Translations under genes and position numbers: made by a program
Origin: a virus
IMG/VR virus record: IMGVR_UViG_3300037156_000269
Location: 1 to 64,000 of that record
Length of the DNA: 64,000 bases
Direction: 5' to 3' (one strand)
Shown here: piece after piece, positions 55,921-59,685 of the stretch
Position numbering within the stretch: position 1 is the stretch's first letter
Layout: each line of letters begins with the position of its first letter
The notes under the pieces: generated by a model
Databases searched by the model: none
Told to the model about the DNA's origin: nothing
What the model saw: the letters and a program-made list of their open reading frames with translations, nothing else

Positions 55921-55955
55921 TAAAAAAAACCCACCCCTTTTTACGGGGGTGGGTT
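55921..55955 (-). terminator. Terminator closing the periodic-array transcript
   Basis: A 10-bp stem (AACCCACCCC with GGGGTGGGTT). Read on the minus strand it is followed by TTTTTTTTA; on the plus strand no U-tract follows. It therefore ends minus-strand transcription coming from the array and the gene at 56892-57767. It may also block read-through from terL. Confidence 0.75.
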
Positions 55956-56886
55956 GCCGCAGAACGTCACTGCGCAACACTATGCCCATGCTTTACAGCA
56001 CGTCACCCTGCTCTGCAAAAGCCCAACAATGCGACACTGCACCGTGACGAAGCTTCACGATAATTCACACTGCCATGCCGCTGCAGAACCATACTTGACC
56101 CCACCTCATCATGCCAATGCTTCACTCGGATTCAACAAAACTGCGCCTCATTTTACCGTGACGAGGCTTCACTAAGCCGCAGCTCACCTTGCCAACACTT
56201 CACGTTGCTGTGCTACACCTTGACATCACTTCACCGTAGCTCACCTTGCCAAAACAAAACAGGACCCAACGGCGCCTTACCAACGCGAACCTAGACCAAG
56301 CTTTACGATACCGCCGCACAACACTACTCCACTTTACTGCTGCTATTCTAGACCGTACATTGCCAACGCTAAACCGCACGCCACCTCATCATGCCCATGC
56401 CATGCTAGACGCTGCTTCACCTTACCCATGCACTACCTGACCTAACTAAACTATGCTGGTACGAGGCCATACTCCACCTCACTCCACAACAACAGCACAA
56501 TACTCGGCCGTACTAAAACAATGCTGAACTGAACCTTACCACTGCTTTACAGCACCTATGCATTACCTAACGTCACCTCACCCTACCAATACCGATCTGG
56601 ACTATGCAGAACTCTGCTATGCCGATGCCTTGCGAAACCATGCCACACCTCGCTATTGCATGAGACCGCCACACAGAACCACTGCTCAGCATCACCTCGC
56701 CTCACCATACCAACGCGTTACCGGGCTTAACCACGCAGACACTTTGCAGAGCCTTACAACACCGATGCCTGACTTTACATCACCAATGTGATACTCTAGA
56801 CTACTTTACCATTACAGACCTGTACGACACTCCGCCTCGCCTCGCCACGACCGTACATTGCTTCACATCACCATTACTTTACAAGT
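55956..56886 (-). repeat. 930-nt quasi-periodic G-Y array (5-6 nt period)
   Basis: Non-coding. On the minus strand a G followed by a pyrimidine recurs every 5 or occasionally 6 nt over the whole stretch. Hand parsing of 56701-56760 gives GTGTT GTAAG GCTCT, then GCAAA GTGTCT GCGTG, GTTAA GCCCG GTAAC and GCGTTG GTATG GTGAG. Where a unit lacks the GY start, the spacing to the next is about 10-11, so the phase is kept. On the plus strand the region is G-poor and C-rich. It starts right after the stop of the RAMP-like gene and ends at a terminator. Frames inside it are short and low-complexity and are not convincing genes. Confidence 0.75.
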
Positions 56887-56891
56887 TTGGT

Positions 56892-57767
56892 TTATTGGAC
56901 GGTCGGTTGCTGTTCGGCAGTTGCTGTCTTTTTACGGAGTGGAATATCGACTTCAGCGTTGATGCACTTAATCTCGCTGGAAAACATACCTCTACCACTA
57001 TTGCGCCATTGTCCTAACCCATTGAAATATTGGCCATATTCGAAAATATCGAGAAGGAAATCCTCTGTCAGTTTCGAGTTCTTTAAGACACGCAAATCAA
57101 ACTCAAACTCTGTTCCGGGTTCAATGACTTCAGACTTGGCCAGCGTCACGCGGGGGCCTTGAGCTGTGATCACGCGGAGTGAGCGCTCAAGGAAATAAGG
57201 CGTTCCGTCGGCGTTGCGCTTTAGATCCTTGTTGGCCACGATGAACGGGTTTACACATCGCACTTGAGTGTTGATGATCTCATGAGTGTAGGTAGCCGAT
57301 TGGAGGATTGTGCCATTCTTCTTTTCTCGGACTTGGCACAATGTCTTCGCTGCGGCCTTCATGTATCCGTAGATCATGTGATCTCCGATGCACGGACGGT
57401 TTGTTTCTTTATCCCAGAAGAAGATTGTCGCACCTTTTAGATCTAGACTCTGGAAGGTTTCTTTCAGCGCTTCGAGTTTACCGGTCAAAGCCATATCGCG
57501 CTGCTCAGGAGTGAATGTGTAGCCAACGACGGTCTCTAGGCTGTCCACGAGGCGAGACAATTCCTCATCGCCCTTTTCAGCAGAGATTTTCATCTGTCCG
57601 AGGTATTTATTGACCGCTGTGTTCACGTCACTCTTGTCGAGAATGAGCTCGCGCTGCTTCGAGAGGATGTGAGTGTTGTGGATGTGCGGATCGGACGGGT
57701 TGGTTGCAAGCATCTCTCTTAGAAGAGTGAGCTTGATGTGATACAGATCAAAAATAGTTGCACGCAT
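56892..57767 (-). CDS. RAMP-like (Cas5/6/7-type fold) conserved phage protein
   Basis: A 291-residue product. The N-terminus forms a likely beta strand (YHIKLTLLREMLATNP). A central TIFFWDKETNRPCIGDHMIY and the block LRVITAQGPRVTLAKSE, then GTEFEFDLRVL, are signatures I know from an uncharacterised phage family (RxxTAQGPRVxLAxSE, GTxFEF). Near residues 250-260, GLGQWRNSGRG fits the GhGxxxxxGxG glycine-rich loop of RAMP RNA-binding proteins, followed by a beta strand. It has its own promoter (57824-57852). The transcript runs into the 930-nt periodic array, hinting that the protein binds that RNA. Fold and binding are inferred. Confidence 0.6.
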   Translation of the reverse strand: MRATIFDLYHIKLTLLREMLATNPSDPHIHNTHILSKQRELILDKSDVNTAVNKYLGQMKISAEKGDEELSRLVDSLETVVGYTFTPEQRDMALTGKLEALKETFQSLDLKGATIFFWDKETNRPCIGDHMIYGYMKAAAKTLCQVREKKNGTILQSATYTHEIINTQVRCVNPFIVANKDLKRNADGTPYFLERSLRVITAQGPRVTLAKSEVIEPGTEFEFDLRVLKNSKLTEDFLLDIFEYGQYFNGLGQWRNSGRGMFSSEIKCINAEVDIPLRKKTATAEQQPTVQ

Positions 57768-57885: not shown

Positions 57886-58125
57886 TCACAGAACATTTTT
57901 TGTTTCTAGTGCCAACTCTATCTGTTCGCTTAAGCTCTTTAGACACGCTTCCCTATCTATCTTCACATGTGCTCCCATGCCTTCTGCCTCCATAAATTCG
58001 ATGAGCTCATCGAGCGCCTTCTTTGCCTGCTCGTAGTTCTTATCTTTGTAGTCTGGGTTGAGCACTGTCTGTGTCGCAAAGTTGTTGACGAAGGACATGA
58101 AAAAATCTGTCTGGTGAAGTTGCAT
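57886..58125 (-). CDS. Small hypothetical protein
   Basis: A 79-residue product; start chosen at ATG 58125 with TAGGAG upstream. Begins MQLHQTDFFMSFVNNFATQT. The rest is an acidic/basic helical hairpin (EQAKKALDELIEFMEAEGMG, CLKSLSEQIELALETKNVL). No motif. Typical of small phage accessory proteins. Confidence 0.5.
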   Translation of the reverse strand: MQLHQTDFFMSFVNNFATQTVLNPDYKDKNYEQAKKALDELIEFMEAEGMGAHVKIDREACLKSLSEQIELALETKNVL

Positions 58126-58132
58126 AAATCTC

Positions 58133-58417
58133 CTATGGTTTGTGTGGAATCTTCTCAAAACAAAGATCAGCCTCATCAAGTAGAACATTCAGTATCTTGA
58201 AAAGCTCCGGCGTCAGTTCCTCTATACTGAACGCACAGACAACGCTTGTGATCTTGTTTAGAAGCTCGGCGCTTTCGTTAATCATTATAATCTCGCTGTG
58301 ACTCAGACTGAGTTTGCCTCCGTGTGCTTGCGCACGAAGACTATCTCTTAAGAAGTGCATTTTCTGTGTGAAGTGGTCTACCCTCTCCAGTAACTCGGCT
58401 AGATCTTCATTTGGCAT
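58133..58417 (-). CDS. Small helical protein
   Basis: A 94-residue product from ATG 58417 behind AAAGGAG. Predicted coiled coil (LAELLERVDHFTQKMHFLRD, ESAELLNKITSVVCAFSIEE, ELFKILNVLLDEADLCF). No known domain. Lies in a string of small minus-strand genes. Confidence 0.5.
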   Translation of the reverse strand: MPNEDLAELLERVDHFTQKMHFLRDSLRAQAHGGKLSLSHSEIIMINESAELLNKITSVVCAFSIEELTPELFKILNVLLDEADLCFEKIPHKP

Positions 58418-58604: not shown

Positions 58605-59471
58605 TTATAACGTCGATACACGGATCGGGCCTGAGACAGTGGTGACATCGGATCCAGAAAGGCTGGCGTTACTGAACAGCATCATACCTGTCGCCGAGGC
58701 GCCGCTGGCGTGGCAGCTTGAATCGAAGTACGAGAGGTAGTTTGTACCACCTGCCACATAAGCGTGGGCCTGGAGATAGCCTCCGTTGTAGACCACAATC
58801 TCACCCTCCATATAGGACGTGGAGCCTGCTCCGGCTGGGGCCATGACGTTACCCGTGCAACCTGCGCCGTCGTAGTACATTGTTCCGACGACTCTGATAC
58901 CGCCAGCAGCCGTGTTGCTATAACTGATGAGGTGGCCAGATACGGTGTTCAGGAACAAGTTATAGTACTGGGTACCCATGATGAACTGGAGGTTGGGCTG
59001 AGCGCTTCCAGTGGAGTCGTGGACGACGAGAGCGCTTCCAGCGGCACCGGCTGCTCCAGTCGCTCCTGTTGCGCCGGCGGGGCCTGTTGCTCCTGTGACT
59101 CCGGTCGCACCCGTAGCACCGGCTGCTCCAGTAGGACCAGCGGCGCCGGCTGCTCCGGCCGGGCCGGTAGCGCCTGCGGCACCAGCGGCGCCTGTGGCTC
59201 CGGTCGCACCTGTGCTACCGGTTGCTCCAGCTGCGCCAGCGGGACCTACGAGGCTCATGACGGTAGCGGTTGTTCCATTGCAGGTCATGTCGACGTTGTT
59301 GCCGTTTTGAGCGAGGGTACAGCCAGCATCAGCGAGAACCTGTTGCAGTTTAGAAGGGGCAGTAAGCGCTGGAGTCGCGGCAGTTGAGGAACCACCAGCT
59401 CCGCCTCCGGGACAAGCAGTGAGAGTAAGAGTCGATGAAAGAGCAAGTACAACTGTGTATAATGTTTTCAT
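58605..59471 (-). CDS. Lipoprotein with collagen-like Gly-X-Y repeat
   Basis: A 288-residue product; start chosen at ATG 59471 (AAGGAG upstream). Signal and lipobox LTLTAC followed by PGGGAGG. A short N-terminal domain with a Cys pair ([17 protein letters not shown]) precedes about 24 uninterrupted G-X-Y triplets (GAA, GAT, GPA type). A C-terminal domain of about 110 residues with Cys residues follows ([29 protein letters not shown]). Probably a trimeric surface-exposed stalk with a globular head, anchored to the host outer membrane. Such a product suggests the phage remodels the host surface; function unproven. Confidence 0.75.
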
Positions 59472-59481
59472 ATAAATCTCC

Positions 59482-59685
59482 TTAGTTTGTTTTATTACAA
59501 AGATCGTGGAACGCGTAAAACCCGTTGACCGGGAGTCCGAGAATTGCGACGAGAGTGTTTTCAATACACACTCTTGCCACGTCTGTTTTTTCTATGTAGC
59601 TCTGCTCGAATGTCTTATCAGTGGTTGTGCCGAGGGTGGCACATCCAGAGAGAAAGACGAACGAGCATAAAATAACTTTATTCAT
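59482..59685 (-). CDS. Small lipoprotein
   Basis: A 67-residue product from ATG 59685 behind [25 protein letters not shown] is a lipoprotein signal. The mature part of about 52 residues has two Cys ([16 protein letters not shown]). The start overlaps the end of the upstream gene. Likely a periplasmic or outer-membrane accessory protein. Confidence 0.6.

What the first reader, a model, noticed from the sequence alone, without database searches (positions are those of the whole stretch)
55956..56886. 930-nt non-coding array with a G-pyrimidine step every 5 to 6 nt
Read on the minus strand, almost the whole stretch parses as units GYNNN or GYNNNN. In 56821-56880 they run GTAATG GTGAT GTGAA, then GCAAT GTACG GTCGTG, GCGAG GCGAG GCGGA and GTGTC GTACA. 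In 56401-56460 nearly every unit also fits. Gaps in the pattern are about 10-11 nt, so phase is kept. I know of no standard feature like this. Two readings: (a) RNA bound by a protein with a 5-6 nt footprint, comparable in period to TRAP-type or Cas7-type RNA binding; (b) DNA phased at half a helical turn (5.25 bp) for bending or protein loading. It is not a simple tandem repeat, because the variable positions differ from unit to unit.
Basis: seen in the sequence. Interest (0 to 1): 0.92.

Follow-up and report, generated by a model that had tools for sequence, protein, structure and literature searches.

The report
Phage guide-RNA array beside Vipr gene
A virus of bacteria carries a 930-letter string of about 180 small RNA units beside a gene for a CRISPR-like RNA-binding protein; it is very probably a guide RNA of the recently reported VIPR kind, which phages use to silence rival phages, here in an unusually long form with a regular extra beat.

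Summary
On the minus strand, GY steps sit on a lattice of 5.181 nt over 930 nt. 169 of 180 lattice points are filled. Fourier power is 94, against at most 12 in 2,000 dinucleotide shuffles. The non-integer period is not helical phasing: one unit in every 5-6 is 6 nt instead of 5, giving super-units of mostly 26, 31 or 36 nt, far more regular than chance (0 of 2,000). The adjacent gene (56892-57767, minus) encodes a RAMP/Cas7-like protein: Foldseek gives 89 PDB hits with E<=0.001, best being type VII Cas7 and Csm-complex subunits, and it aligns with the Vipr protein of phage SUSP1 (E about 2e-5). Of 127 homologous loci with enough flanking DNA, 120 have such an array within 1.5 kb, all on the gene's strand. 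This matches VIPR (preprint PMC13142463, 2026), in which Vipr binds RNAs of GGY/NN repeats that read DNA with gaps and repress rival phages. What differs here: relaxed GYNNN units, a 5.5-unit super-period, ~180 contiguous units, no separate guides or tails seen. No target was found in 2.2 Mb of related phage DNA, so the code is untested. Verdict: a variant of a known system.

The parts
55956..56886 (-). Guide-type array: about 178 contiguous GYNNN / GYNNNN units (146 of 5 nt, 32 of 6 nt), mean period 5.181 nt, no separate tails
   Evidence: Lattice fit and DP parse; Fourier power 94 against <=12 in shuffles
56892..57767 (-). vipr-like gene, 291 aa RAMP/Cas7-like protein, immediately upstream of the array on the same strand
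   Evidence: Profile hits Cas7 and Csm4 in PDB; AlphaFold2 model pLDDT 77.7; Foldseek best hits type VII Cas7 and Csm complexes; hhalign to SUSP1 Vipr E=2.1e-5
56982..57020 (-). Glycine-rich loop of the RAMP protein, residues 250-262 GLGQWRNSGRGMF, matching GVGDWRPRFGRF of SUSP1 Vipr
   Evidence: G250, Q253, W254, N256, G260 invariant in 81 homologues; aligned with SUSP1
55928..55955 (-). Intrinsic terminator directly after the array (10-pair stem, T run); by sequence it also reads as a terminator for the converging terminase gene on the plus strand
   Evidence: plus-strand reading from the sequence

Best explanation
The array is the guide-RNA part of a VIPR-like system. The minus strand is transcribed from vipr through the array to the terminator. 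Vipr (56892-57767) assembles along the RNA, one subunit per 5-nt unit, holding the conserved G-Y and presenting the variable bases. These pair with DNA of a competing element in a gapped manner, as in SUSP1 VIPR (two bases read, one target base skipped), and bound complexes block transcription. The regular 6-nt units (mostly every 5-7 units) most likely set the register or borders of overlapping guides of about two super-units (about 11 units, 57 nt). Shown here: the lattice, the super-period, the predicted RAMP fold, the gene-array linkage and strand, and block turnover of arrays. Taken from the preprint for relatives: RNA-protein complex, gapped code, repression. Inferred only: transcription of this array, the role of the 6-nt units, the guide length and the targets of this phage.
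For: Lattice and super-period. RAMP protein by profile, by model and fold search and by alignment with SUSP1 Vipr. 120 of 127 homologous loci have an array within 1.5 kb, 120 of 120 on the same strand, 108 downstream and 12 upstream. SUSP1, Mycobacterium phage LittleE and Gordonia phages show GGYNN arrays beside their Vipr homologues, as the preprint reports for SUSP1. Positions 3-5 of the unit are near-random in 11,275 units while G is 92%. Arrays turn over by blocks while vipr stays 85-98% identical, and internal duplications are mostly whole super-units, 57 nt (11 units) being the commonest. The array RNA has no folding signal, z = -0.17, as expected for an extended guide.
Against: No target was found: gapped matching with several registers and skips against 2.2 Mb of related phage DNA gave nothing above shuffled arrays. 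The GGY consensus is not kept (first G only 34% in the window). No 3' tail was seen. Transcription and binding are untested. hhalign probability to SUSP1 Vipr is moderate (73-77%).
Confidence: 0.85

Rival explanations
1. The array is a decoy or scaffold RNA: Vipr coats a long RNA for another purpose (regulating its own level, packaging, or sequestering something), and the variable bases carry no target information.
For: No targets found. Continuous arrays of up to about 912 units (L117) are far longer than any single guide and lack obvious borders.
Against: Hypervariable bases and block turnover fit guides better than a scaffold, which need not vary; related systems are shown in the preprint to target DNA.
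Confidence: 0.08
2. DNA element phased at half a helical turn for bending or loading of a DNA-binding protein.
For: 5.18 x 2 = 10.36, close to the DNA helical repeat; phase is kept over 930 bp.
Against: The fraction comes from discrete 6-nt units; relatives range about 5.1-5.2 and SUSP1 has 5.0; all 120 nearby arrays lie on the vipr strand, which a DNA element would not need.
Confidence: 0.02
3. Decayed or low-complexity sequence produced by slippage, without function.
For: Array sequences can duplicate in multiples of units.
Against: Tandem Repeats Finder reports no repeat there; units are mutually dissimilar yet the lattice holds; G changes at 4% against 10-13% for other positions; linkage to vipr in 120 of 127 loci.
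Confidence: 0.02

Closest known systems
VIPR systems, type II (Escherichia phage SUSP1 and Pseudomonas fulva prophage), PMC13142463
   Same: Phage-borne single RAMP protein with glycine loop; same-strand noncoding arrays of about 5-nt units with G-pyrimidine constant and variable bases between; array upstream or downstream of the gene.
   Different: SUSP1 vrRNAs are separate ~100-nt RNAs of 9-16 strict 5-nt YNNGG units with 3' tails; here about 178 contiguous units, only GY conserved, a 6-nt unit every 5-6 units, no tails seen; Vipr is 291 aa with an extra, mostly helical segment.
VIPR types with staggered arrays and overlapping vrRNAs (named in the preprint, fig. S18, not readable here)
   Same: A continuous array with overlapping guides would fit what is seen.
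   Different: Could not be compared; this clade may be one of those types.
Class 1 CRISPR effectors (type VII Cas7, Csm3)
   Same: Best structural matches of the protein; these proteins oligomerise on guide RNA with a contact repeated about every 6 nt (from general knowledge).
   Different: No CRISPR repeats and no spacers at this locus; the conserved bases recur every 5 nt within the array itself.
TIGR-Tas
   Same: Guide-RNA arrays in phages and bacteria that target DNA (PMC12045711 abstract).
   Different: The neighbouring protein here is a RAMP; no repeated array element was found by Tandem Repeats Finder.

Membership tests
VIPR | RAMP-fold Vipr protein with glycine-rich loop | tested here: met
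   Foldseek best hits Cas7/Csm subunits at E about 1e-6; PDB profile hits Cas7 E=1.6e-4 and Csm4; hhalign to SUSP1 Vipr E=2.1e-5 and to a five-member Vipr profile E=3.2e-5, glycine loop aligned
VIPR | Noncoding tandem array next to vipr | tested here: met
   Within 1.5 kb, same strand, in 120 of 127 homologous loci; in the window directly downstream
VIPR | YNNGG (GGY/NN) unit, strict 5 nt, 9-16 units per RNA | tested here: not met
   Unit is GYNNN with the first G of GGY only 34%, 18% of units are 6 nt, about 178 units run on. The preprint allows 'a related consensus' for other types.
VIPR | Conserved 3' tail of the vrRNA | tested here: inconclusive
   The window array runs to a terminator within a few nt; nothing tail-like interrupts it; no Rfam family, including hammerhead, in 54-60 kb apart from one chance-level hit inside vipr
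VIPR | 1-nt-skip recognition of DNA targets | tested here: inconclusive
   No excess of gapped matches over shuffles in 2.2 Mb of related phage DNA; the database is small
VIPR | vipr accessory (vap) gene | tested here: inconclusive
   The two small genes upstream (57886-58188, 58133-58417) have no Pfam match and no significant PHROG match; vap models were not available
VIPR | RNA is transcribed and copurifies with Vipr | not testable with these tools
   Needs small RNA sequencing and pull-down
Class 1 CRISPR-Cas | Array of identical direct repeats with spacers | tested here: not met
   Tandem Repeats Finder reports nothing in 55956-56886
TIGR-Tas | Tas protein beside the array | tested here: not met
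   The adjacent protein is a RAMP by fold and profile; other neighbours were examined only

The most novel reading that the evidence does not exclude
A VIPR variant with a two-level code: 5-nt units read the target, and a 6-nt unit every 5-7 units (clade core G-C/T-A-A-N-G-G) marks the start of overlapping guides, so that one unbroken RNA of hundreds of units is a dense bank of staggered guides without tails or spacers, with its own unit consensus (GY-purine-NN).
Probability: 0.35. Interest if true: 0.75.

Novelty: new variant of a known kind. Interest (0 to 1): 0.62.

Why it matters
VIPR is proposed as an ancestor-like relative of CRISPR. Here is a large clade (251 homologues found in one scan of a viral collection) whose arrays are continuous and carry a super-period not described in the preprint's main text. 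If the 6-nt units delimit guides, the arrays become readable, and many guide-to-target predictions among uncultured phages could be made and tested.

Tried and rejected
Helical phasing: rejected because the fraction of 5.18 is due to discrete 6-nt units. Coding sequence: no long ORF and a period not a multiple of 3. CRISPR or tandem repeats: TRF negative. Rfam: nothing except a weak chance-level hit inside vipr. RNA structure: z = -0.17. Array terminators as a general feature: only 7% of arrays against 6% of random stretches, so the window terminator is local. Target search: positions (2,3), (3,4), (1,2), (2,4), triplets, several skips, and several ways of crossing 6-nt units; no signal, including a weak z = 2.4 for (3,4) with 1-nt skip that did not hold up against further shuffles. 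Rest of the window's phage record (64-175 kb): no second array and no second vipr. DNA similarity of a related phage (L158) to named phages and plasmids, to learn its host: no match.

Full report
Observation. On the minus strand of 55956-56886 the dinucleotide GY recurs with a period of 5.18 nt. The excess at 5 nt is z = 13.9 over dinucleotide shuffles. Fourier power is 94, against a maximum of 12 in 2,000 shuffles, and no other part of the window has a comparable signal. A lattice of 5.181 nt is filled at 169 of 180 points with a residual of 0.37 nt.

What makes the period non-integer. Parsing gives 146 five-nt and 32 six-nt units. Six-nt units follow one another after 3 to 7 units (mean 5.5, variance 1.0; random placement would give 24.9), and no random order of the same spacings is as coherent (0 of 2,000). 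Super-units are therefore mostly 26, 31 or 36 nt. In 120 arrays of the set the same regularity holds (median variance ratio 0.16). In the clade the six-nt unit has the core G-C/T-A-A-N-G followed by G. This removes the need for a helical explanation.

The neighbour. The gene 56892-57767 has no significant Pfam or PHROG match and no NCBIfam match. A profile of 81 homologues matches Cas7 (E = 1.6e-4) and Csm4 in the PDB. The AlphaFold2 model (pLDDT 77.7, pTM 0.73) has 89 PDB matches at E <= 0.001, the top ones being Cas7 of type VII and Csm-complex subunits. It aligns over its length with the protein I take to be Vipr of Escherichia phage SUSP1 (hhalign E = 2.1e-5; with four SUSP1 homologues added, E = 3.2e-5), with the glycine-rich loop in register. 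The identification of ALH47069 as SUSP1 Vipr is mine: it is the 195-aa gene flanked by one upstream and several downstream YNNGG blocks, as the preprint describes.

Relatives. Scans of viral and genomic contigs gave many homologues (251 confirmed in one scan). Of 127 distinct loci with room on both sides, 120 have an array within 1.5 kb, every one on the strand of the gene, 108 downstream and 12 upstream; the median array has 119 units. The four closest relatives of the window gene (L111-L114, 50-53% identity; L113 and L114 have the same array) have arrays too. The largest array has about 912 units (L117). Hydrogenobaculum phage 1 has a distant homologue with a weaker G-H array of period 5.22.

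Known system. The preprint PMC13142463 describes VIPR: a phage RAMP, Vipr, with vrRNAs of alternating GGY/NN units that bind double-stranded DNA by a gapped code with one skipped base and repress competing mobile elements. It names seven types, a 'related consensus' in some, and staggered arrays with overlapping vrRNAs in some; its supplement could not be read here. SUSP1, LittleE and Gordonia arrays in my hands show the 5-nt GGYNN form.

How it probably works. By analogy, Vipr coats the transcript one unit at a time and the variable bases read DNA. Support from this clade: in 11,275 five-nt units the G is 92% conserved and the last three positions are near-random. Among related arrays the G changes at 4%, the other four positions at 10-13%; the third position changes mostly between purines or between pyrimidines, the fourth freely, which together with its purine bias hints at GY-purine-NN. 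These pairs are not independent, so this is a hint only. Arrays of closely related phages share blocks that are inserted, lost and duplicated while vipr stays 85-98% identical. Internal duplications are mostly whole super-units, 57 nt (11 units) most often (4 of 26). Eleven units lie within the 9-16 units of a SUSP1-type vrRNA. My inference, untested, is that guides span about two super-units and overlap.

What was not found. Gapped matching of all arrays against 2.2 Mb of related phage DNA (both strands) gave no excess over shuffled arrays for any rule tried. The database is a tiny part of the possible targets, so this neither supports nor refutes the code. No tail, hammerhead or structure was seen.

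Verdict. The finding is a real, functional-looking guide array beside its RAMP protein: a variant of VIPR. The general phenomenon is already described, and this clade may be among the preprint's types. The super-period and the continuous length are what a specialist would still want explained.

Noticed in passing
L117 10541-15230 (same contig as L060): An array of about 912 units (4.7 kb) beside a vipr homologue in a 243-kb phage contig, the longest seen.
   Followed up: partly
L110 2758-4260 (Hydrogenobaculum phage 1, KP282676): A named phage with a recorded host genus carries a distant Vipr homologue (ALG96927) followed by a G-H array of period 5.22.
   Followed up: partly
L013 571-1000; L016 5130-5529; L019 2861-3990: GC-rich periodic stretches of about 4.9-5.0 nt near vipr of this clade, at least one (L013) nearly lacking six-nt units; possibly another array form.
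   Followed up: no
L113 12339-15281: The terminase of this relative is 980 aa and appears to carry an intein-like insertion that the window terminase (568 aa) lacks.
   Followed up: no
window 57430-57650: Residues about 41-110 of the window Vipr form a mostly helical insertion absent from most of the clade (about 197 aa) and also present in the ~264-aa proteins of L111 and L113.
   Followed up: partly
window 58605-59564; L113 8376-9191: Collagen-like lipoprotein-type genes with Gly-X-Y repeats near vipr in both phages.
   Followed up: no
L113 6141-6674 and 10829-11110: Two separate arrays about 4 kb apart in one phage, only one next to vipr.
   Followed up: no
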